Shown here piece after piece: positions 16,577 to 61,355 of a stretch of 64,000 nt of DNA (position 1 is the stretch's first letter; every line of letters starts with the position of its first letter). The notes under the pieces were generated by a model. It worked only from the letters and a program-made list of their open reading frames with translations, did not search any database and was not told where the DNA came from. The position numbers and the translations under genes were made by a program. This DNA comes from Micromonospora chersina (GTDB lineage Bacteria; Actinomycetota; Actinomycetes; Mycobacteriales; Micromonosporaceae), in assembly GCF_900091475.1 (NCBI RefSeq), contig NZ_FMIB01000002.1, positions 4,216,001 through 4,280,000 of the forward strand. Reading direction: 5' to 3'.

Positions 16577-16592
16577 TGTTTCACGTGGAACA
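16577..16592. promoter_or_regulatory. parS-like site with one mismatch (outlying)
   Basis: TGTTTCACGTGGAACA matches the 16-bp ParB target TGTTTCACGTGAAACA at 15 of 16 positions. It lies between the FrnE-type stop and the convergent YbaK gene, about 39 kb from the main parS cluster. One arm base is changed, so ParB affinity may be lower. Confidence 0.75.
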
Positions 16593-40158: not shown

Positions 40159-40198
40159 TGTGGATAACCGCTGTGGAAACCGGCCAGACTGTGGATAA
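40159..40198 (-). promoter_or_regulatory. Two perfect DnaA boxes between gyrB and gyrA
   Basis: TGTGGATAA, the complement of the consensus TTATCCACA, occurs exactly at 40159-40167 and 40190-40198, with weaker TGTGGAAAC and TGTGGACCG nearby. They lie in the 130-bp gap upstream of gyrA, about 8 kb from oriC. They could titrate DnaA or regulate gyrA. Confidence 0.7.
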
Positions 40199-46809: not shown

Positions 46810-47943
46810 TCAGCGGGACACGCGGATCGGCATGATGAGGTACCGGTACCCCGGGATGACCTCGCCATCCTCGCCCGCCGGGGAAATCACCGCGGGCTTG
46901 AAGGCGTCGACGAACGCCAGCTGGGCGAACTGGGCGCCCAGGTTGCTGAGGCCGTCGATCAGGTACTGCGGGTTGAAGCCGATGGTCAGCGGGTCGCCCG
47001 TGAAGGTCGCCTCCATGGCCTCGCTGGCCCGGGCCTCCTCGGTGCCGCCGGCCTCGACCACCAGGCCGTCGGAGCTGAAGCTGAGCAGCACCGGGGTGGT
47101 GCGCTCGGCGACCAGGGCCACCCGCTTGACCACCTCGATGAGCGTGGCGACCGGGACCCGGGCCTCGGCGTTGTGGCTGGCCGGGAAGAGCGAGCGCACC
47201 GGCGGGTAGTTGGCCCCGTCGAGCAGCCGGCTGGTGGTCCGGCGGGTGCCGCCGGAGAAGCCGATCATGCCCTCGCCGGCGCCGCCCTGAGACAGCGCCA
47301 TGGTGACGTGGCCGCCGAGCGGGCCGAGGGCCTTGGCGGTGTCGTGCAGCGTGCGGGCGGGCACCAGCGCGTTGAGGCTGATCTCCGGGTCGTCCGGGTT
47401 CCACTCCATCTCGCGCAGGGCCAGGCGGTAGCGGTCGGTGGCGAGCATCGCCAGCGTGCTGCCGGACAGCTCGATCCGGACGCCGGTCATCATCGGCAGC
47501 GTCTCGTCGCGGCCGGCGGCCACGGCCACCTGGGCCACCGCGGCGGCGAACGCGGCCGCGTCGACGGTGCCGGCGCTCTCCGGCATCTCGGGCAGGGTCG
47601 GGTAGTCCTCGACCGGCATGGTCGGCAGGGTGAACCGGGCGCTGCCGCAGACCAGTTCCAGGTGCGCGCCGACGGCGGCGATGTCCACCGGCTTGGCCGG
47701 GAGCGCCTTGGTGATCTCGGCGAGCAGCCGGCCGGAGACCAGGGCGGCGCCGTCGGCGTCACCCTGCACCTCGACGGTGACCTGGCTGGAGACCTCGTAG
47801 TCGAAACCGGAGACCTGGAGGTTGCCGTCGGTGACGCGGAGCATCACCCCGGCCAGCACCGGTACGGAGGGTCGGTTGGGCAGGCTCTTGGCGGTCCACG
47901 CGACCGCCTCGGCGAGCGCGTCGCGCTCCACTCGGAACTTCAT
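46810..47943 (-). CDS. dnaN: DNA polymerase III sliding clamp (beta)
   Basis: The protein has 377 residues, the usual beta clamp length, with three similar domains. The start MKFRVERDALAEAVAWTAKSLPNRPSVPVLAGVML and the C-terminal end YRYLIMPIRVSR are characteristic; the latter forms part of the clamp-binding pocket. The ATG at 47943 is fixed by the conserved N-terminus. It lies immediately left of oriC. Confidence 0.97.
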   Translation of the reverse strand: MKFRVERDALAEAVAWTAKSLPNRPSVPVLAGVMLRVTDGNLQVSGFDYEVSSQVTVEVQGDADGAALVSGRLLAEITKALPAKPVDIAAVGAHLELVCGSARFTLPTMPVEDYPTLPEMPESAGTVDAAAFAAAVAQVAVAAGRDETLPMMTGVRIELSGSTLAMLATDRYRLALREMEWNPDDPEISLNALVPARTLHDTAKALGPLGGHVTMALSQGGAGEGMIGFSGGTRRTTSRLLDGANYPPVRSLFPASHNAEARVPVATLIEVVKRVALVAERTTPVLLSFSSDGLVVEAGGTEEARASEAMEATFTGDPLTIGFNPQYLIDGLSNLGAQFAQLAFVDAFKPAVISPAGEDGEVIPGYRYLIMPIRVSR

Positions 47944-48655
47944 CAATGCCTCCGCGTCGACGTCAGCGACAACTCTCTCATGCCGACCGCTGCCACCCGT
48001 CCCGCCCGACCGTGCGGGTACCCATCGCACCTTAGGGCGCGTGGGCATCGGCTGTGCGCCCGACCCCGTGGATCCAGGTGCCCGGGCGACTGCCGGCGGC
48101 AGTGCTCCGGCCCGATCCACAGGAAGTCCAACGGTGATGATTGGTTTTTGTTGTTTAGAAGAGATAACTCATCGTCTTCATCGCACCTGTGCAAACTGTG
48201 GAGAACCAGCGTCCGCCCAGGTCAGACAGGTTATCCACCGGTGGTTTCGCTGTGGAGAACCAGGGGTACAACCCGTGTCCGGGTCCACAGCCGTCGCCAG
48301 CCGCCGGGTTTTCCACGGCTGTCCACCGGTTGTCCACCGCTAATCCACCGGGTTTCTCCCCAGTGTTGTGGACAGCGCCGACGCCGTCGACCGTCGTCGT
48401 CCCCAGAACCTTCAACAGGCCACCCACAGGCCGACCGTCGTCGGTGGACAACCCGACCGTCGTCCCCAGGCGTCCACAGCCTCGTCCCCAGGGGTTGTCC
48501 ACAGTCTGTGGGTAACCGGACCGGAACCGAGCGTGGTTATCCACCGCCTGTGACACAGGGGATGTGGACAAGCGGACCGAGTTGTGGATGAACACGACTC
48601 TGATCGTGGGCCCTGAACCGGGTCGAGGGTCAAGCCCCGGCTGTGCACAGGCACG
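47944..48655. other. Replication origin oriC between dnaN and dnaA
   Basis: About 700 bp without genes carry many DnaA-box-like nonamers. Examples are TTATCCACC at 48231-48239 and 48537-48545, TTGTCCACC at 48330-48338, TAATCCACC at 48341-48349, TGTGGACAG at 48367-48375, GGTGGACAA at 48443-48451, TTGTCCACA at 48495-48503, TGTGGACAA at 48563-48571 and TGTGGATGA at 48583-48591, in both orientations. An AT-rich stretch at 48135-48173 (TTTTTGTTGTTTAGAAG) on the dnaN side is a likely unwinding element. The layout matches the chromosomal origin of actinobacteria. Confidence 0.92.
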
Positions 48656-48703: not shown

Positions 48704-50530
48704 TCAGGTGGTCTGCTTGATCCGGTTGGTCAGCTCGGCGATCTGGTTGTAGAGCGAGCGCCGCTCCGCCATCTGCTGGCGGATCTTCCGGTCGGCGTGC
48801 ATGACCGTCGTGTGGTCCCGACCGCCGAACGCCTGCCCGATCCGGGGCAACGACAGGTCGGTCAGCTCCCGGCACAGGTACATGGCCACCTGGCGGGCGT
48901 TGACCAGCACCCGGGACCGGGAGTGGCCGCGCAGGTCCTCCAGGCTCACTCCGAAGTAGTCCGCGGTGGAGACCATGATCTGGTCGGCGGTGATCTCCGG
49001 GCCGGCGCCGTCCGGGATGAAGTCCCGCAGCACCTCCTCGGCCAGCGACAGCTCCACCGACGAGCGGGTGAGGCTGGCGAACGCGGTGACCCGGATCAGC
49101 GCGCCCTCGAGTTCCCGGATCGAGTTCGACACCCGGGAGGCGATGAACTCCAGCACGTCCGGCGGGGCGAACAGCCGCTCCTGCGCCGCCTTCTTCTGGA
49201 GGATCGCGATCCGGGTCTCCAGGTCCGGCGGCTGGATGTCGGCGAGCAGGCCCCACTCGAAGCGGGTCCGCAGCCGGTCCTCCAGCGTCGCCAGCTGCTT
49301 GGGCGAACGGTCCGAGGTGATCACGATCTGCTTGTTGGCGTTGTGCAGGGTGTTGAAGGTGTGGAAGAACTCCTCCTGGGTCCGCTCCCGGTTCTCCAGG
49401 AACTGGATGTCGTCGATCAGGAGGATGTCCACGTCCCGGTAGCGGCGCTGGAACGCGCTCGTCTTGTCGTCCCGCAGCGAGTTGATGAAGTCGTTCGTGA
49501 ACTCCTCGGTCGAGACGTACCGGACCGAGCGGGCGTTGCCCAGCGTCGTGGCGTAGTGCCCGATGGCGTGCAGCAGGTGGGTCTTGCCCAGCCCGGAGCT
49601 GCCGTAGATGAACAGCGGGTTGTACGCCTTCGCCGGCGACTCGGCCACCGCCACGCTCGCCGCGTGGGCGAAGCGGTTGGACGAACCGATGACGAACGTC
49701 TCGAACATGTACTTCGGGTTGAGCCGGTTGCCACCGCTCTCCGCACCGCCGGGCAGCCGCCGGTCGGACTGGCCGCCGGGACGGTGGTCGGGGGCGCCGC
49801 GACCCGGGCCGCTGTCCGTGGCGCCGTCGCGGGGCAGGCCGCGCAGCGGCGGGGCGTCGGCCGGGCCGGCCGCCTCCCGGTAGCGGGGCTCGTAGCCACC
49901 GGCGTCGGGGGCGGGCGCCTCGACCCGGGCCCGCTCGTCGAAGGCCCGGCGCTCGGGGGCGGCGCGCAGCGGTTCGGCGAAGGCAGCGCTGAAGAGCGTG
50001 TCCTGCCCGTCGCGGCTGGCCGGGATGAGCTGGGGGCGGGCGCCGTCGGCGGTGCGCTGCCGGGGGGCGGGCTCCTCGGCCGGCGGCTCCGGGCGCGGGT
50101 CGGCGTACGCGGGGGCCTCCGGCCGGGCCGGCGGGAAGCCCAGGTCGGGGAAGCCCGGAGCGGTGTCCGCCGGAGCGGGCTGCTCGAAGCCGGCGAGCAG
50201 GTCCGCGGGGCCGGCCAGGGGCTCCGGGCCGCTGCGGTAGACGGTGCCGGCCGGACGGCCGCCCGGATCCTCGGCGACGCGCACGGTGACGGCGACCTGG
50301 ATGGGCCGGCCGAGCCGGCGGCTCAACGCCTCGGTGATGGCCGGGCGGAGGCGGGACTCGATCACGTCCCGGGTGAACGCGTCCGGTACGGAGAGGAGCG
50401 CGGTGTCCTCGACGATCGCCCGGAGCCGGGTCAACCGGAGGTACGCCCGCTGCTGCGCGGAGATGATCTCGTCGGCGAGCTCGTCGGTCGTCGCCGTCCA
50501 CACCGCGGCAAGGTCGTTCGATCCGGTCAC
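48704..50530 (-). CDS. dnaA: Chromosomal replication initiator DnaA
   Basis: The protein has 608 residues, longer than E. coli DnaA (467) because of an extended disordered domain II (about 90-265). Domain I covers 1-85. The AAA+ domain has Walker A GSSGLGKT at 310-317 and Walker B LLIDDIQF at 370-377. The C-terminal HTH contains the DnaA-box signature [14 protein letters not shown]. The start is GTG at 50530 with GAGGGGG some distance upstream. Perfect DnaA boxes upstream suggest autoregulation. Confidence 0.97.
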
Positions 50531-51107
50531 CGTCGTGCCACCCCCTCGCCTCTCCTCACGCCCGCCCGGACGGCTGACCGGTCGTCATCCACAAGTTATC
50601 CACAGCCTGTGTGTACCGACCGATTGTGGCCGCCCACCGGACGCGGGTCGGACCTGCCCCCCTGGTTTCCGGAGGCGCTGAAGCGGGTTCACCGTGCCGA
50701 ACGATTCACTACCTTGTCCGGTCTTGCCGGTCAGCGACAAACTCGGACCCCCCGACGCTGACCGCAATCGGGCACGCTAACAGCGCGGACCCCGCGCCAT
50801 CAACCGTCGACACCGGGGCAGCCTTGTCAACATCAGTGAAAACCGCCCCTTCGGTCGCGCTTCCCGCGCTGGTCGGGGCCCGGGTGTGAGGTTTGACGGT
50901 CATTGCCGCCCTGCGTAGGCTGGAGCGGCTGCTCTCTCGCCCTCTGCTAGGGTGATGGGTGCTTGCTGTCCGCGGTCGCTTCCCCGCATCGCCGAGGTCC
51001 CGCGCCGCCGGGCAGCACCGATCGGAGGCCACCCCCGAGGTGGCCTGGACCACCACACGACCCCGGGCGATCCCCCGCGCGGGGCGTACGACAACGGAGA
51101 GCCTGAC
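50531..51107. promoter_or_regulatory. dnaA-rpmH divergent control region
   Basis: The 577-bp gap contains TCATCCACA at 50585-50593 and a perfect DnaA box, TTATCCACA, at 50596-50604, about 55 bp upstream of dnaA. For the plus strand, TTGACG at 50893-50898 and TAGGCT at 50916-50921 are 17 bp apart, a consensus-like promoter for rpmH. No gene is seen between, and no further origin-like cluster. Confidence 0.75.
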
Positions 51108-55188: not shown

Positions 55189-56556
55189 GTGCATGACGAC
55201 GGCAGGTACGACGATCGACGGGTGACCGGGCCTGGAGGGCAGCCCTCCGCCACCGGCCCCGTTTCACGTGAAACCACCTACCAGGGCTGGCCGGCGAGCG
55301 GCGAGCCCGACGACCCGTCCACGCGTCCCCCGGACTGCGATCCGGTGGTGCGCCGGGAGGCGCCGTCGACGGGTGCCGTGCGACCGGTCTCCTCCGTACC
55401 GGCGAACGTGCCGCTCGCCCGGGACCCGCACGACCCGAACGGCGGACCGGCGAACGCGCCCACCCCTCGTCCCGCCGCCGCGCGCGGGAACGCGGCGGTT
55501 CCCGCGCGCTACGAACCGCAGCCTCCGGTGGTAGCCGTGCCGCAGCAGCCCACCCCGGAAGCCGCGCCGGACGTGGCCGCGGGTGTGGCTGCCCCTGCCG
55601 ACACGCCACCGGCCGCCGGCTACGACGACGAACCCACCGCGAGCACGTACGTTTCACGTGAAACCCCGACGCGCGAAGAGGATGACCCACCGTTGGCTAT
55701 GGAGGCTATGCGCGCCGTGCAGATCCTGAATCCCAGTGGTGAGGTCACCATGCCCCGCCCCGAACGGACCCGGGTGATGTGCGTCGCCAACCAGAAGGGC
55801 GGCGTGGGCAAGACCACGACCACGGTGAACCTGGCGGTGGCGCTCGCCCTGCACGGCAACCGGGTGCTGGTGGTCGACCTCGACCCGCAGGGCAACGCCT
55901 CCACGGGGCTCAACGTGCCGCACCACACCGGGGTGCCGGACGTCTACGACTGCCTCATCGACAGCGTGCCGCTGGAGGAGGTGGCGCAGGCCGTCGAGGG
56001 CATCCCGAACCTGTGGTGCGTACCGGCCACCATCGACCTGGCGGGCGCGGAGATCGAACTGGTCTCGGTGGTCGCCCGGGAGTCCCGGCTGGCCCGGGCC
56101 ATCGCCGCGTACCCGGGGCACTTCGACTACGTCTTCATCGACTGCCCGCCGTCGCTCGGCCTGCTGACCGTCAACGCGCTGGTCGCCGCGCAGGAGGTGC
56201 TGATCCCCATCCAGTGCGAGTACTACGCGCTGGAGGGCCTCAACCAGTTGATCCAGAACATCAACCTGGTCCGGCAGCACCTCAACCCGAAGCTCGAGGT
56301 CTCCACCATCCTGCTCACCATGTACGACCGGCGTACCCGGTTGGCCGACGCCGTGGAACAGGACGTCCGGAACCACTTCGGGGACAAGGTGCTCCAAGCC
56401 GTGATCCCCCGGAACGTACGAGTCTCCGAGGCACCCAGCTACGGGCAGTCCGTGATGACCTACGATCCCGGTTCGCGGGGGGCCACGAGCTACTTCGAGG
56501 CCGCCCAGGAAATCGCCGAGCGAGGCGTCATGGAGCCGGTGAGCCGGAATGCGTAG
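55189..56556 (+). CDS. parA: Chromosome partitioning ATPase ParA (Soj)
   Basis: The protein has 455 residues from the GTG at 55189. Residues 188-455 form the deviant Walker ATPase: CVANQKGGVGKTTTTVNLAVAL with Lys203 and Lys208, then VVDLDPQGNASTGL and YVFIDCPPSLGLLTVNAL. It moves ParB-parS complexes along the nucleoid. The first 187 residues are disordered Pro/Ala-rich. Two parS sites lie inside them, each translated as VSRET. If the true start is at 55699 or 55750, the parS sites would be upstream control sites instead. The gene is followed 27 bp later by parB. Confidence 0.95.
   Translation: MHDDGRYDDRRVTGPGGQPSATGPVSRETTYQGWPASGEPDDPSTRPPDCDPVVRREAPSTGAVRPVSSVPANVPLARDPHDPNGGPANAPTPRPAAARGNAAVPARYEPQPPVVAVPQQPTPEAAPDVAAGVAAPADTPPAAGYDDEPTASTYVSRETPTREEDDPPLAMEAMRAVQILNPSGEVTMPRPERTRVMCVANQKGGVGKTTTTVNLAVALALHGNRVLVVDLDPQGNASTGLNVPHHTGVPDVYDCLIDSVPLEEVAQAVEGIPNLWCVPATIDLAGAEIELVSVVARESRLARAIAAYPGHFDYVFIDCPPSLGLLTVNALVAAQEVLIPIQCEYYALEGLNQLIQNINLVRQHLNPKLEVSTILLTMYDRRTRLADAVEQDVRNHFGDKVLQAVIPRNVRVSEAPSYGQSVMTYDPGSRGATSYFEAAQEIAERGVMEPVSRNA
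55260..55275. promoter_or_regulatory. parS site 1 (inside parA frame)
   Basis: The core GTTTCACGTGAAAC is perfect at 55261-55274, with C on each side in place of the outer T and A. It lies in the 5' part of the parA frame and encodes VSRET. Confidence 0.9.
55650..55665. promoter_or_regulatory. parS site 2 (inside parA frame)
   Basis: The perfect core GTTTCACGTGAAAC is at 55651-55664. It lies 34 bp before the ATG at 55699, one of the possible internal starts of parA, so ParB could also bind the promoter region of a shorter parA. Confidence 0.9.
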
Positions 56557-56583
56557 TGCGGAGAAGTCGCTGGGAGGCGTCGC

Positions 56584-57639
56584 ATGAAGAACCGTCCTCG
56601 CGGCGGACTGGGCCGGGGGCTCGGTGCCCTCATCCCCACCGGACCCGTGCCGGGCAGCACCCCGGCAGCCGCCGAGACCGAGAACGGTACGGCGACAGCC
56701 GTCCCGGTAGCCCCCGCCAGCGGTGCGGCGGCAGTCACGACCGGAGCCCTCGGCGCCGGTGAGGTGACCACCTCGGGTGCCCCGCCCGCGGAGCCGGAGC
56801 CGCAACTGAGCCCCGTCCCGGGTGCCCGCTTCGCCGAGATCCCGGTCGACAGCATCGTGCCGAACCCGAAGCAGCCCCGGCACGTCTTCGACGAGGAGGC
56901 GCTGGAGGAGCTGAAGACCTCGATCCAGGAGGTGGGTTTCCTCCAGCCGATCGTGGTCCGCCAGCTCGACAGCGAGAAGTACGAACTCGTCATGGGCGAG
57001 CGGCGCTGGCGTGCGGCCCAGGCGGTCGGCCGGGAGAACATCCCCGCCATCGTCCGGGACACCAAGGACGACGCGATGCTCCGGGACGCGCTGCTGGAGA
57101 ACATCCACCGGGCCAACCTCAACCCCCTGGAAGAGGCGGCCGCGTACCAGCAACTGCTGGAGGAGTTCGGCGCCACACACGAGGAGCTTGCCCGCCGGAT
57201 CGGCCGGAGCCGGCCGCAGATCTCCAACACCATCCGGCTGATGAACCTGCCCGCCCAGGTGCAGCGGCGGGTCGCCGCAGGGGTGCTGTCCGCCGGCCAC
57301 GCCCGTGCCCTATTGAGCCTCGACGACGCCGACGCGCAGGAGCAGCTCGCCAAGCGCATCGTCGCCGAGGGCATCTCCGTACGCGCCACCGAGGAACTCG
57401 TCGCGCTGGCACTCGCCGACGGCCCGGCGAAGACCCCGGCCGCGAAGCGCCGACCCAAGGCGCACGCGCCCGCGCTGACGGACCTCGCCGACCGGCTCTC
57501 CGACCGCTTCGACACCCGGGTGAAGGTCGACATCGGCCGGAGCAAGGGGAAGATCACGATCGAGTTCGCGACGGTCGACGACCTCGAGCGGATCGTCGGG
57601 ATCATCGGCGTGGGCCAGGAGGAGCAGCCTGGGGAGTGA
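56584..57639 (+). CDS. parB: Chromosome partitioning CTPase ParB
   Basis: The protein has 351 residues. It binds parS and slides as a CTP clamp. The N-terminus [17 protein letters not shown] is the ParA-interacting motif. The CTP pocket includes GERRWRA at 138-144 and [14 protein letters not shown]. The parS-binding HTH is [27 protein letters not shown] (about 196-222). The C-terminal dimer domain ends near [13 protein letters not shown]. The ATG has GGGAGG 7 bases upstream. Confidence 0.97.
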
Positions 57640-57650
57640 CTCCTTCCTGT

Positions 57651-57699
57651 CGGTCTCGGCCGCGTGGTCCCTGCGGGGGCGACGCGGCCGAGCCGTTTT
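57651..57699 (+). terminator. Terminator of the parAB operon
   Basis: CTCGGCCGCGT at 57655-57665 pairs with ACGCGGCCGAG at 57682-57692 and is followed by TTTT at 57696-57699, 16 bp after the parB stop. Confidence 0.8.
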
Positions 57700-57961
57700 G
57701 AGGGGCTCGCCGGCCGCTGCGGATCTCGTGGCCGGACCTCTCCCAGATGGTGCCGGGGCTCGGACTGTTGAGGCCCGGTTTGGAGGCCCGGGGCGCGAGC
57801 GGACGGCAGGGGCCGGGCGGGAGTCCTCCCGGCTTGCTCCCCCGTCGCGGTGCCGGGCCGAACGAGTGCTGTGTCTGGACCTACCTGGTGGTGCTGATGG
57901 GTTGTCGCGCGGGCTGCATGGTCGCGCGGCCCGATGCCGCTAAGAGTGCTGGCGCGCGGTG

Positions 57962-57977
57962 TGTTTCACGTGAAACG
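57962..57977. promoter_or_regulatory. parS site 3
   Basis: TGTTTCACGTGAAACG has a perfect 14-bp core at 57963-57976 and one outer mismatch. It lies about 320 bp after the parB stop. Confidence 0.92.
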
Positions 57978-58234
57978 GTGGCGGGGCGCTGGACTCGGTT
58001 CCACGAGGAATCCCCGCACCGGTCGTTCCGGCCGCTTCTCACTGCTGGTCATGGGGTGGCCCGCCTTCCCGGTCGCTGGGGGGTTGGCCGCTCATCGGCC
58101 AGGCCGGTGTCGACGGCCCCGTGGCGGCCTTCCCCGTTCTGCCGCCAGGCGGGGGTCCTGCCCCGGTGGCGCCGTTTGCCCGGCGGCGCGCCGGCTCGAT
58201 GAGGCTCTCGCCAGGGCGACACCGCGGTCTCTCT

Positions 58235-58480
58235 GGTGGCGCCGTTTCTCCGGTGGCCGTCCGTTCTCTGATGGCGTCGTCCTTCTGATGGCGCCGCCTC
58301 CGGTGGGACCGCCTGTTCGGTGGGACCGCCTCTCGGGTGGGACCGCCTGTCCGGTGGGACCGCCTCTCGGGTGGGACCGCCTGTCCGGTGGGACCGCCTG
58401 TCCGGTGGGACCGCCTGTCCGGTGGGACCGCCTCTCTGGTGGGACCGCCCCTCCATGGGACCGCCCCTCCGGTGGGACCA
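58235..58480. repeat. Tandem array A, 17-bp units
   Basis: Units of GGTGGGACCGCCTGTCC and variants ending TCTCG, TGTTC or CCTCC run head to tail: nine 17-mers from 58302 to 58454, one 16-mer at 58455-58470 and a partial unit to 58480. Decayed units of 15-18 bp (GGTGGCGCCGTTTCTCC, GATGGCGTCGTCCTTCT) extend it left to 58235. Units abut, with no spacers. Because 17 is not a multiple of three, the array is open in several frames, which creates false open frames on both strands. Confidence 0.9.
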
Positions 58481-59186
58481 ATGCGCCGGGCACTGTTACC
58501 TCCCCGATCCGCACTGCTGCCCCGGTGGTGTCCCCTGGCCGGCGGTGTCCCCTCCGCCGGCGGTGGCCCTTGCGCGGGTGTCAGTCGGCGCTCGGCGTCC
58601 TCGCCCTGGGCCGCAACCCACCGCGAAGGCTCATGACGATGTCGTCCGCTGGCGGGCGCCCGCTCGCTCGGGTCGCCGTCGCTCCTCCGCAGCTTCCGGG
58701 AATCGCCTCGTGTTCAGCAGACCACTCTTCCCGGGGCTGTGTGACCTTCTGAAGCCGTCCGTCGTCAGCCTTGGTGTCTGGCGAGTCCGTTCCCATCTGG
58801 AGCCGGCTCTGGGGCTCTGGACGGGCGCGAGGGCTCATCCCATGTCACCGCACTGCTCCGGCCTTTCGTTCGCGGTCCCGATGAGGCCGGGCCCGAGTCA
58901 ACGCGCCGAAAGGCCACGCGCCGCTTCATGCCTAGAAGGAGTCCGAACCGTGAGCCGAGACGGTGTGGCAGGTCCGCGGTCGACTTCCCGTCGCAAGCAA
59001 GGCGGCCGGTCCGGGTCCGAGGGATTCCCCGAGTGCACGGTGGATTGAGGCCGGTCCGCCGCCTTCGGATGATCCGGCCTCGATGAGCAGAAGAGGCGTC
59101 TCGGTCCATGAACAGAAGAGAGGTCTCGGTACCGGCGCCCCGGAGCGGGGTGGGCCTCTGGCCAACAAACCTCGCTGCCGCCTCGC

Positions 59187-59202
59187 TGTTTCACGTGAAA
59201 CA
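59187..59202. promoter_or_regulatory. parS site 4 (perfect)
   Basis: TGTTTCACGTGAAACA matches the ParB consensus at all 16 positions. It lies between the two repeat arrays. Confidence 0.95.
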
Positions 59203-59611
59203 CCGGAACCGCGCCTCCGCCAGCCGGTGAGCGGTCCTTCTGCTCGACGTGACCATCCGAGGCTGGACGGTCCGGACCGTGACCGGAGGGGGCGGCTGCC
59301 CGCTCGGACGAGCCTAGGAAAATCCGCTCCCCGGGAAGCCTCGCGGTTCGAACCGGTGGGTGTCCGCGGGTGCCTCACGCGGCTGCCCCGACTCCCCGCA
59401 ACCGCCCTGCCCGTCAGAGACGCCCGTCCCCCGGCCGGCATCGCGGGCCACGTGGGGTCAGGCCCTGCGGAAGATGTCTGCGCCGGAGGCCGCCCCGCCG
59501 GTCTGCGCCGGCCCGGAGGAGTCGCCGGTCGAGCAGTGGGCCGGTGAGGAGTCGGTCGGTCAAGGAGCGAACCAGTCCACCGGCGGGTTCGCCGAAAAGC
59601 GGCTTGGCCAA

Positions 59612-59900
59612 GCAGCGAGATCGGTCTGGTAGCGAGTCGGTCCGGTGGCAAGGGTCCATCGGGTGGCAGGTTCGGTCGGGTGGCAGGTTCGATCGGGTGG
59701 CCACCTCGGTCGGCAGCGGGCTCGGTCGGGTGGCGGGCTCCGTCGGCAGCGGCTCGGTCGGGTGGCGCGCTCGGTCGGCAGCGGGCTCGGTCGATAGCGG
59801 ATCCGTCGGACAGCGAGGTCGGTCGGACAGCCGAGGGCCGGGTCGAGAGCGGGGTCGATCGTGGGCCGGCCGAGGGTCGGCCGAGAGCGGATCGGTCGAC
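59612..59900. repeat. Array B, degenerate 15-17-bp units
   Basis: The unit GGGTGGCAGGTTCGGTC at 59661-59677 is followed by GGGTGGCAGGTTCGATC, GGGTGGCCACCTCGGTC, GGCAGCGGGCTCGGTC, GGGTGGCGGGCTCCGTC, GGCAGCGGCTCGGTC and so on to about 59900; similar units start near 59612. The length varies from 15 to 20 bp, with GG(G)TGG at the start and TCGGTC at the end. Array B shares period and GGTGG start with array A, but the rest differs. Confidence 0.82.
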
Positions 59901-60190
59901 AGACAGCCGGTTCGGCCGGCTGGGACGCGGCTGTTCGTCGGGATGCCAAGCGCACCGGAATTGCGGTCACCGCCGTCGACCGGGCCACCGCACCGCCGTC
60001 AACCAGGCCGCCGCGAGGCACGCACGGGCCGACGGCGGCCGGCGCGGTGACGACCCCGGAGCGGTGCGGGAGGGCTGAGACGAGCGCTACGGATTGCCTC
60101 CGCTGGAGTCCCGTCGATCCGCTCCTAGGCGACGAAGGACAATCGGCTGACGGCGACCCGGCGCTCCCACGAGCCCACCCCGGGAGGAAC

Positions 60191-60206
60191 CGTTTCACGT
60201 GAAACC
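60191..60206. promoter_or_regulatory. parS site 5
   Basis: The perfect core GTTTCACGTGAAAC is at 60192-60205, flanked by C on both sides. Confidence 0.92.
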
Positions 60207-60353
60207 GGCCCGCACCGCGGCGTTCCGATCCCTCCCGACGAGCGCCTCAATAAGAAGCCGGAGAGCCGAGAAGCAGGCCGGTGCGGATGGCCGGCTCGCT
60301 CGTTAGGAAGGAAGGACCGAGCCACCCCGCCCCCCCTGCACAGCCACCCGTCG

Positions 60354-60494
60354 TTATCCACAGCTGTTTTCCACAGGCCCTCACCGTTTCACGTGAAACA
60401 GCGCGCGAAAACCCTTGCTGAGCAGTGGATGACGCCGTGTGGTGGTGATCTCAGCGCCCTGTGGACAACGCGGTGGACAACCCGTTGTGGATCG
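60354..60494. promoter_or_regulatory. DnaA-box-like cluster beside parS
   Basis: A perfect DnaA box, TTATCCACA, at 60354-60362 is followed by TTTTCCACA at 60367-60375, TGTGGACAA at 60460-60468, GGTGGACAA at 60472-60480 and TGTGGATCG at 60486-60494. It overlaps parS site 6 and lies about 12 kb from oriC, upstream of the gene starting at 60564. Confidence 0.7.
60385..60400. promoter_or_regulatory. parS site 6
   Basis: CGTTTCACGTGAAACA has the perfect core at 60386-60399. It is embedded in the DnaA-box-like cluster. Confidence 0.92.
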
Positions 60495-60563
60495 ACGAGG
60501 AACGCTCGCCTGCCCGGCGGTCAGGTAGGGACAGGCGTCGCCAACTCGGTTAGGGTCAGCGTC

Positions 60564-61355
60564 GTGCAGGACACCCCTCCCTCAGTCCCGGACTTCACCC
60601 AGTGGCCCTCCTTTCCCTTCGAGGGCGATCTACGAGTCAAGCAGCTCGACGAGCCGGTCCCGGTCGAGCCTCCCCGCCGCGGCGAGGGGCACCGGGAATG
60701 CACCGCCTGCAACGCGCCGGACGAGGCGTACATCTGGGTGGGTGAGCGATGGCGGGTCCGGGCGATGGACCGACCCACCGGCCTCCCGATGGTGCTGATC
60801 CTGGAGTCCCGGTCGCACCTCGACCTCGGCGACCTGCCGAACCTGCTCGCCGCCGAGTTGGGCGTGATGACGGTGCGCCTGGAGCGGGCCATCCGCTCAC
60901 TGGACGGTGTGGCCCGAGTGCACGTCAACCGCTGGGGTGACGGGTCGGCGCACCTGCACATGTGGTTCCTGGCGCGGCCGTACGGGCGGCTGCAACTGCG
61001 GGGCACGTTCCTGTCCCTGTGGGACTCGATCCTGCCGCCGATCTCCGAGGCGCAGTGGCGGGAGAATCTGGCGATGGTCGCCGCGTGGCTCGCCGAGTTC
61101 GGTGGCCGTCCGCTGGCCGAGCCTCCCCGCATCCAATGGCAGGCGCCGTCGAGCCTTGCGGCGCAGTCGGCCGGCGAGGCCGTCGAGGAGCCGGAGGAGG
61201 AGACCGCCTCGGTGATCGAGGCAGCGGACGAGATTCCGGAGGCCGAAGTGGCGGAGGCGCCCGCGACCGAGGATCCGGCGAAGGCGAGCACACCGGGGGA
61301 GCCCGAGGAGCCGGAGGAGGCCGAGGAGCCGCGGCGGACCCAGGCGCCGACGTAG
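60564..61355 (+). CDS. Hypothetical protein with HIT-like motif and acidic tail
   Basis: The protein has 263 residues. A conserved-looking core of about 180 residues includes ECTACNAPDEAYIWVGERWRV and HVNRWGDGSAHLHMWFLARP, reminiscent of HIT-family histidine motifs. It continues with LRGTFLSLWDSILPPI and a disordered Glu/Pro-rich tail (PEEPEEAEEPRRTQAPT). The GTG at 60564 is directly preceded by TAGGGT at 60551-60556, so the mRNA may be leaderless. The function is unknown; its closeness to parAB is conserved-looking but untested. Confidence 0.7.
   Translation: MQDTPPSVPDFTQWPSFPFEGDLRVKQLDEPVPVEPPRRGEGHRECTACNAPDEAYIWVGERWRVRAMDRPTGLPMVLILESRSHLDLGDLPNLLAAELGVMTVRLERAIRSLDGVARVHVNRWGDGSAHLHMWFLARPYGRLQLRGTFLSLWDSILPPISEAQWRENLAMVAAWLAEFGGRPLAEPPRIQWQAPSSLAAQSAGEAVEEPEEETASVIEAADEIPEAEVAEAPATEDPAKASTPGEPEEPEEAEEPRRTQAPT

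What the first reader, a model, noticed from the sequence alone, without database searches (positions are those of the whole stretch)
57700..60563. Repeat- and parS-rich gene desert next to parAB, a candidate centromere-like region
About 2.9 kb with no credible gene carry four perfect-core parS sites, two different arrays with a period near 17 bp and a DnaA-box-like cluster. In most actinobacteria parS sites are spread among genes around the origin; a compact gene-free block with its own repeat arrays is unusual. The arrays could space ParB clamps, bind a second nucleoid protein or encode a structural RNA.
Basis: partly seen in the sequence, partly recalled or inferred. Interest (0 to 1): 0.75.

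Follow-up and report, generated by a model that had tools for sequence, protein, structure and literature searches.

The report
Compact centromere with DnaA-parS composite site
Next to the chromosome-segregation genes of a Micromonospora lies a gene-free stretch whose sequence is not shared even with its closest sampled relatives, except for its ParB docking sites and one element in which docking sites for the replication starter DnaA sit at fixed distances from a ParB site, which suggests that starting replication and moving chromosomes apart are wired together there.

Summary
Window 57640-60563 is gene-free DNA between parB and an uncharacterised HIT-like gene, with four perfect parS sites, two unrelated arrays of period near 17 and a DnaA-box cluster. 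Comparison changes the emphasis. The gap is in all 58 usable Micromonospora genomes (362-3034 bp), yet its middle 2.6 kb aligns to none of 83 other loci. Such gaps are rich in tandem arrays, but sequences and periods vary. Two things are kept. (1) parS: in 58 of 58 genomes every exact parS 14-mer (280 of 280) lies in parAB or this gap. (2) A composite element near the HIT-like gene: two direct DnaA boxes 13 bp apart, parS 17-19 bp after the second, usually an opposed box exactly 38 bp after the parS start. The geometry is in 95 of 103 Micromonosporaceae loci, in 11 turned round relative to the flanking genes; some genera lack it. I found no gene, no Rfam hit, no conserved fold. Best reading: a compact centromere whose DnaA-parS element couples DnaA to ParB loading, working like the DnaA-bound parS of Caulobacter. 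Binding and coupling are inferred. New variant of a known kind.

The parts
55189..56556 (+). parA ORF (455 aa; ParA-type ATPase domain from about residue 195); holds two exact parS sites in its N-terminal extension
   Evidence: Pfam AAA_31/CbiA; parS 55261, 55651
56584..57639 (+). parB
   Evidence: match in 61 of 61 Micromonospora genomes
57655..57692 (+). terminator-like inverted repeat just after parB, inside the only parB-side block (57643-57698) that aligns to relatives
   Evidence: inverted repeat I8; block aligned in at most 6 of 83 loci
57640..60563 (.). gene-free parS region (the 'desert')
   Evidence: flat codon-position GC; gap lengths in relatives; middle part unalignable
57963..57976 (.). 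parS 1 (exact)
58298..58479 (+). tandem array 1, period 17, lineage-specific
   Evidence: aligns to none of 83 loci
59188..59201 (.). parS 2 (exact)
59637..59826 (+). tandem array 2, period about 16-17 with 32/48/65-bp higher orders, lineage-specific
   Evidence: aligns to none of 83 loci
60192..60205 (.). parS 3 (exact)
60354..60362 (+). DnaA box 1 of the composite element, TTATCCACA
   Evidence: TTATCCACA in 84 of 95 elements
60367..60375 (+). DnaA box 2, TTTTCCACA, 13 bp after box 1 (13 bp in 95 of 95 elements)
60386..60399 (.). parS 4, the parS of the composite element, 19 bp after the start of box 2
60424..60432 (-). DnaA box 3 position (TCATCCACT here, degenerate; a TCCACA-core box exactly 38 bp from parS start in 75 of 95 elements)
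60460..60468 (-). DnaA box 4, TTGTCCACA
60472..60480 (-). DnaA box 5, TTGTCCACC
60528..60556 (+). promoter-like GGGACA-N17-TAGGGT of the HIT-like gene, separate from the composite element
   Evidence: read from the sequence; a TAGRRT/TAGCGT word close to the start in 92 of 103 loci
60564..61355 (+). uncharacterised HIT-like gene that bounds the region (263 aa, H-x-H-x-W motif)
   Evidence: match in 216 of 220 family genomes; no Pfam hit below E 0.1, no NCBIfam or PDB hit; some sources name relatives Ap4A HIT-family hydrolase
48197..48591 (.). presumed oriC: 11 DnaA-box-like sites between dnaA and dnaN, about 12 kb from the composite element
   Evidence: dnaN 46810-48120 (-); dnaA 48704-50530 (-)

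Best explanation
The interval is the gene-free half of a compact chromosomal centromere. ParB clamps load at exact parS sites that all lie in about 5 kb (two inside the parA ORF, four in the gap here) and slide on a gene-free track closed off by a terminator-like repeat after parB and by the promoter of the HIT-like gene. The DNA between the parS sites, tandem arrays included, is fast-evolving filler. Near the HIT-like gene sits one composite element in which DnaA boxes flank a parS at fixed spacing, so DnaA and ParB bind side by side. DnaA occupancy there most likely controls ParB loading or sliding (or is controlled by it), tying DnaA activity or passage of the first replication fork to segregation, much as DnaA at the Caulobacter parS is proposed to do. 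Shown by sequence: parS confinement, gene-free turnover, element geometry and conservation. Inferred from motif identity: ParB and DnaA binding. Inferred without direct evidence: the coupling and its direction.
For: All 280 of 280 exact parS sites of 58 Micromonospora genomes lie in the 3.2 kb ending with parB (112) or in the gap (168). Only the first 56-bp block and the last about 290 bp of the gap align to any of 83 other loci; the HIT-proximal end aligns in 78 of 83. Element geometry in 95 of 103 loci (the 103 hold 95 distinct gap sequences; 87 distinct elements); box1-box2 exactly 13 bp in 95 of 95, opposed TCCACA-core box exactly 38 bp from parS start in 75, 37 bp in one, absent in 19. 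Mean information 1.2 bits in boxes 1-3, 0.78 and 0.74 in the two spacers next to parS, 0.24 in the tail. The element is inverted as a unit in 11 loci, so it is not tied to the direction of a neighbouring gene. The strict pattern is in 207 of 300 family genomes with 0 in the backward control; the related reverse pattern is in 2 of 396 phylum genomes, both Micromonospora. Circular-shift test: a box within 60 bp of a parS in 56 of 57 Micromonospora loci against 5.1 expected, and in 19 of 19 other family loci against 3.9.
Against: No binding, transcription or segregation data exist here. Eight of 103 loci lack the geometry; six of these keep an opposed box pair but with parS outside it. Of 14 further family genomes picked mostly because their genus missed the strict pattern, one (L216) has the inverted element, four (L217-L220) have boxes near parS in other arrangements, L221 and L222 have no box in the gap, one (L229) ends too early, and six with ParB at 55-61% identity (L223-L228) lack the element, with a single one-mismatch box in one gap (L223); five of those six still have parS in the gap. 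So the centromere can work without the element. The spacers beside parS are themselves moderately conserved, so fixed spacing is partly shared descent. Window box 3 is degenerate. The high array content of the gaps is not explained by 'filler' alone unless slippage goes unchecked there. In B. subtilis ParA control of DnaA does not depend on parS location (PMC7614844, abstract and passages). Gap length varies about eightfold within the genus, so no exact track length is needed.
Confidence: 0.55

Rival explanations
1. DnaA reservoir: the boxes only titrate or convert DnaA near oriC (like datA/DARS of E. coli or the extra-oriC clusters of Streptomyces, both recalled) and sit by parS because both kinds of site cluster near oriC.
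For: Perfect TTATCCACA box 1 in 84 of 95 elements; 12 kb from oriC; extra-oriC DnaA boxes also occur 3-4 kb beyond parB in several Pseudonocardiaceae and upstream of parA in four Streptomyces-like loci.
Against: The spacing to parS is kept (17-19 bp and 38 bp) across genera and through inversion, which titration does not need; a box within 60 bp of parS is far above shifted positions.
Confidence: 0.22
2. Regulatory DNA of the HIT-like gene: DnaA and ParB together control its promoter.
For: In most loci the element's parS lies about 100-370 bp upstream of the start codon; in the window box 5 ends 83 bp before the start.
Against: Distance varies, the element's parS being 719 bp away in L200 and 2.2 kb in L203, and the unit is inverted in 11 loci, while a separate promoter-like word stays close to the start codon in 92 of 103 loci.
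Confidence: 0.12
3. Auxiliary or bipartite replication origin: the boxes help open DNA or load helicase, alone or looped with the dnaA-dnaN origin.
For: Boxes in both orientations; the stretch is less GC-rich (about 0.62 in 60340-60639 values), similar to 0.646 at 48000-48499.
Against: A dnaA-dnaN cluster with 11 sites exists 12 kb away; a parS among the boxes is not a feature of known origins as far as I recall; I saw no A+T-rich stretch in the elements by eye.
Confidence: 0.04
4. The tandem arrays are a functional part (clamp spacers, or a repeat-prone state that ParB or SMC needs), by period or by class and not by sequence.
For: Two different arrays share a period near 17 in this genome; 44 of 58 gaps have an array; arrays cover 7339 of 96208 gap bp against 333 and 453 bp in two equal-length controls, and 40 of 95 periods are 14-19 with mode 16.
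Against: Other periods range from 6 to 89 and no lag near 17 stands out in mean self-similarity; 14 of 58 gaps have none at score 50; the window's arrays align to none of 83 loci, although close relatives can share a similar unit (L059 and L066); gaps as short as 225-254 bp occur in other genera.
Confidence: 0.05
5. The interval holds an unrecognised gene or structural RNA.
For: Some gaps in other species hold coding-like windows: 11213 of 175198 bp, 20 of 77 gaps of 1 kb or more.
Against: The reversed control gives 4809 bp in 12 gaps and parAB gives 94%; window ORFs are flat; no NCBIfam or Rfam hit; the only consensus fold of 60 elements is the parS palindrome, with no covariation.
Confidence: 0.02

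Closest known systems
Caulobacter crescentus parS with DnaA boxes (Mera et al. 2014; not read, described from passages of PMC6399470, PMC4468827 and PMC6667618)
   Same: Replication initiator DnaA binds inside the centromere region, close to oriC (8 kb there, 12 kb here); ParABS present.
   Different: Unrelated phylum; there DnaA binding and DnaA-dependent movement were shown, here only sites are shown; here a frame of two direct boxes and usually one opposed box surrounds one parS and occurs in both orientations. Caulobacter spacing was not compared.
Vibrio cholerae chromosome II rctA/parS2 (passages of PMC6399470 and PMC4468827)
   Same: Initiator sites and a parS in one locus by the origin; crosstalk of replication and partition.
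   Different: Initiator is RctB, not DnaA; the locus represses replication by titration and ParB2 counters it.
Myxococcus xanthus 3-kb cluster of 22 parS (PMC3899335, abstract and passages)
   Same: parS sites packed in a few kb near parAB.
   Different: 22 sites, about 4 kb upstream of parA, parAB about 35 kb from oriC; no DnaA boxes mentioned in the passages seen.
Streptomyces centromere (PMC4852455, passages)
   Same: Same parS sequence, parAB synteny, actinomycete.
   Different: 16 parS within about 200 kb in S. venezuelae and 23 in the chromosome centre of S. coelicolor; in four Streptomyces-like loci no parS is within 60 bp of a box.
Extra-oriC DnaA-box clusters of Streptomyces (Smulczyk-Krawczyszyn et al. 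2006; only its reference entry seen, in PMC13152386; content recalled)
   Same: DnaA-box clusters away from oriC in the origin region.
   Different: No parS composite recalled; paper not held.

Membership tests
Chromosomal ParABS centromere | parS palindromes GTTTCACGTGAAAC next to parAB and near oriC | tested here: met
   Six exact sites within 55261-60399, oriC-like cluster at 48.2-48.6 kb; 58 of 58 congeners
Chromosomal ParABS centromere | ParB binds there and the region drives segregation | not testable with these tools
   needs ChIP-seq and imaging
DnaA-bound centromere (Caulobacter type) | DnaA boxes within the parS region | tested here: met
   above shifted controls
DnaA-bound centromere (Caulobacter type) | DnaA binds the parS region and DnaA-ATP starts segregation | not testable with these tools
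   no binding or cell data
DnaA-bound centromere (Caulobacter type) | common descent with, or same box spacing as, Caulobacter | not tested
   Caulobacter locus not fetched; the reverse pattern was found in no non-Micromonospora genome of the phylum sample (2 of 396 match)
DnaA titration or reactivation locus (datA, DARS) | cluster of DnaA boxes outside oriC | tested here: met
   60354-60480
DnaA titration or reactivation locus (datA, DARS) | changes DnaA-ATP level or initiation frequency | not testable with these tools
   needs flow cytometry or ori:ter ratio
Replication origin | DnaA-box array plus an A+T-rich unwinding element | tested here: inconclusive
   boxes present; no A+T-rich stretch seen by eye in the elements, though local GC is lower
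Protein-coding gene | codon-position bias and conserved product | tested here: not met
Structured RNA | conserved fold with covariation, or Rfam family | tested here: not met
   (fold test on 60 elements only; the middle of the gap cannot be aligned)
Functional satellite array | unit or period conserved in relatives | tested here: not met
   units not shared with the window, periods 6-89 with a loose mode at 14-19; array richness itself is above controls

The most novel reading that the evidence does not exclude
A bacterial centromere built like a regional centromere: a gene-free block of fast-changing, satellite-rich DNA (array content more than ten times that of equal lengths of neighbouring coding DNA) held only by its parS sites and by one DnaA-ParB switch with fixed geometry, so that the same initiator that fires oriC licenses ParB loading (or is released by it). 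It would be a widespread, independently evolved coupling of initiation and segregation in mycelial actinomycetes, with a weaker parallel in Pseudonocardiaceae (a DnaA box within 60 bp of a parS in 7 of 16 loci against 1.6 expected; group chosen after seeing the pattern).
Probability: 0.35. Interest if true: 0.85.

Novelty: new variant of a known kind. Interest (0 to 1): 0.6.

Why it matters
How replication start and chromosome segregation are coordinated is open in most bacteria. A DnaA-parS element with fixed geometry, kept in most sampled members of a large actinomycete family and found in both orientations, gives a short defined DNA target whose mutation would test directly whether DnaA acts at the centromere. 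The surrounding DNA turns over completely while parS number stays near three per gap (36 of 58), which separates what a bacterial centromere needs from what it does not.

Tried and rejected
Second nucleoid-protein motif: the 8-mer search of 72334 bp of variable gap DNA from 56 genomes gave only parS-like words above fourfold. Coding gene: rejected for the window; in relatives an excess over the reversed control remains (11213 against 4809 bp), so a few gaps may have gained a gene, L106 and L117 being candidates. RNA: no Rfam match at E 1, no covarying fold in the element. HIT identity: best Pfam hit E 0.18, no NCBIfam or PDB hit; the name HIT-like rests on the H-x-H-x-W motif and on names given by some sources. 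One search used the HIT-like gene in a wrong frame and is replaced. In one search the frame tested for dnaA was wrong (0 families); one search found DnaA at 48704-50530 (-). The full-family parB search failed and was not repeated as such. Print: of nine paper searches, sought DnaA sites with parS or in actinomycetes, and Streptomyces DnaA-box clusters; no listed title names this element, but lists were capped (20 of 166, 15 of 55, 12 of 14), the library lacks most subscription papers, and of the listed papers I saw only passages of eight.
Full report
What is there. The window is part of a Micromonospora-type chromosome: the closest protein relatives of the gene next to the interval are from M. 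chersina, and the named loci nearest by parB are Micromonospora. Gene order is yidC-jag-rsmG-parA-parB, then the gap 57640-60563, then an uncharacterised HIT-like gene, then Ddl and an aminotransferase on the other strand. A cluster of 11 DnaA-box-like sites lies at 48.2-48.6 kb between dnaA and dnaN, so the gap starts 9 kb, and its DnaA boxes lie 12 kb, from the presumed origin.

Check of the observation. The backward parS pattern gave 0 in 61 genomes. DnaA boxes are expected at 0.2 exact and 5.9 one-mismatch copies per 64 kb; four lie within 127 bp at 60354-60480. The 12 gap ORFs tested have flat GC by codon position, unlike the four neighbouring genes, and the nine given to NCBIfam have no match.

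Comparison within the genus. Of 60 congeners drawn with parB, 57 had DNA reaching the HIT-like gene in the pieces I fetched; G052 was not fetched further and G056 and G059 have contigs that end first, so these three were dropped. In all 57 plus the window the order parB - gap with parS - HIT-like gene is the same; gaps run from 362 to 3034 bp, median 1620. All 280 exact parS sites of these 58 genomes lie in the 3.2 kb that end with parB (112) or in the gap (168); 36 of 58 gaps have exactly three (genome totals). Gap length and parS number correlate weakly (Spearman 0.40). A one-mismatch site is in the window at 16578 and another in the genome about 94 kb beyond the gap, so only the exact sites are confined.

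What changes and what stays. Against the gaps of 83 other loci (blastn, E 1e-5), only 57643-57698 and 60276-60563 of the window gap align at all, the former in at most 6 and the latter's parS part in 78; the middle 2.6 kb aligns to none, including loci with 93% ParB identity. Tandem arrays are in 44 of 58 gaps. Taken together the 58 gaps hold 95 arrays over 7339 of 96208 bp, against 8 arrays (333 bp) in equal lengths of parAB-side DNA and 10 (453 bp) in Markov-3 sequence; 40 of 95 periods are 14-19, mode 16, the rest 6-89. So array richness is a real feature of these gaps, but neither unit nor period is fixed. In 72334 bp of variable gap DNA from 56 genomes, the 8-mers enriched fourfold or more are all parS-like. 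I read the arrays as slippage in little-constrained DNA; a looser role stays possible.

The composite element. Near the HIT-like gene two direct DnaA boxes 13 bp apart precede a parS, with opposed boxes beyond it. Over 103 Micromonosporaceae loci (95 distinct gap sequences), the geometry (box 2 starting 17, 18 or 19 bp before parS: 3, 23, 69) is in 95; box 1 is exactly 13 bp before box 2 in all 95, and an opposed box starts exactly 38 bp after the parS start in 75, 37 in one, and is missing in 19. The window belongs to the 19: its box 3 reads TCATCCACT, but boxes 4 and 5 follow. Boxes 1-3 carry about 1.2 bits per position, the spacers beside parS 0.78 and 0.74, the tail 0.24, so the spacers too keep part of their sequence. 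In L036 both halves of its parS are changed alike to GTTCCACGTGGAAC, still a palindrome and the core of the parS consensus reported for M. xanthus (PMC3899335). The eight loci without the geometry are L110, L111, L117, L153, L188, L189, L195, L201; six of them keep an opposed box pair 56-57 bp apart with parS outside it.

Spread. The strict box-box-parS pattern is in 207 of 300 family genomes and 17 of 44 genera. A reverse parS-box pattern is in 2 of 396 genomes of the phylum sample, both Micromonospora. In an order sample a TCCACA core within 30 bp before a parS is in 37 of 42 family members and 6 of 207 others. Fourteen more family genomes, mostly of genera that missed the strict pattern, were read: L216 has the inverted element; L217-L220 have boxes near a parS in other arrangements; L221 and L222 have no box in the gap (in L221 the HIT-like gene was not found in the piece); L229 ends too early; six unnamed genera with ParB at 55-61% identity (L223-L228) have the HIT-like gene 0.9-5.9 kb after parB, parS in that gap in five of six (none in L225, twelve in L224), and a single one-mismatch box in one gap (L223). 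So the parS-bearing gap is wider than the element. In four Streptomyces-like loci two DnaA boxes sit 97-154 bp from a parS upstream of parA, none within 60 bp. By circular shifts, a box within 60 bp of a parS is in 7 of 16 Pseudonocardiaceae loci against 1.6 expected (0.2% of shifts reach the observed number of such parS), in 2 of 29 other actinobacterial loci against 2.5, in 56 of 57 Micromonospora loci against 5.1, and in 19 of 19 other family loci against 3.9. The Pseudonocardiaceae group was formed after I had seen the pattern, and related loci are not independent, so these fractions are not significance values.

Mechanism. Shown: confinement of exact parS, gene-free turnover, conservation of the element and its spacing. 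Inferred from motif identity: ParB and DnaA bind. Inferred beyond that: with centres about two helical turns (box 2 to parS) and 3.4 turns (parS to box 3) apart, the two proteins should meet on the DNA; DnaA could gate ParB loading or block sliding, or ParB could displace DnaA after the element is replicated. In Caulobacter DnaA binds parS, and low DnaA allows segregation without replication (PMC6399470 and PMC4468827, passages), and in V. cholerae chromosome II the initiator RctB and ParB2 share the rctA/parS2 locus (same passages). Against a general need for such adjacency, B. subtilis ParA control of DnaA is independent of parS location (PMC7614844, abstract and passages).

Rivals. DnaA titration is the strongest rival; the kept spacing argues against it but only mutants can decide. 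Control of the HIT-like promoter is weakened by inversion and by distances up to 2.2 kb. Gene and RNA readings are poorly supported; the array reading is weak but not excluded.

Verdict. A real, compact centromere with a DnaA-parS composite element, widespread in the family but not universal in it: new variant of a known kind, interest 0.6.

Noticed in passing
window 55189-55698: The parA ORF has a long N-terminal extension with weak codon bias (0.79/0.65/0.79 GC by position against 0.69/0.41/0.94 in the core) that holds two exact parS sites; the true parA start may lie downstream and the leader may be a second parS-bearing non-coding stretch.
   Followed up: partly
window 40159-40198 and 50585-50604: Further DnaA boxes: two exact TTATCCACA between gyrA and gyrB, and a direct pair 11 bp apart just upstream of dnaA.
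   Followed up: no
window 60564-61355: The HIT-like gene has a match in 216 of 220 family genomes and follows parB in the loci I fetched with few exceptions, yet has no Pfam, NCBIfam or PDB relative by sequence.
   Followed up: partly
L224 (unnamed genus g26): A 5.9-kb stretch between parB and the HIT-like gene with 12 parS sites and no DnaA box; its coding content was not tested.
   Followed up: no
58 Micromonospora gaps: Tandem-array content far above two equal-length controls, with periods leaning to 14-19 (mode 16) but no shared unit; cause unknown.
   Followed up: partly
L131-L133, L136-L138 (Amycolatopsis, Saccharomonospora, Prauserella): A DnaA box lies between two parS sites in the stretch before rsmG, a possible independent DnaA-parS pairing.
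   Followed up: partly
L112, L115, L119, L120, L123-L125: Named Actinoplanes and Paractinoplanes contigs end 1.4-4.5 kb after parB, before any HIT-like gene, as if assemblies break in the gap.
   Followed up: no
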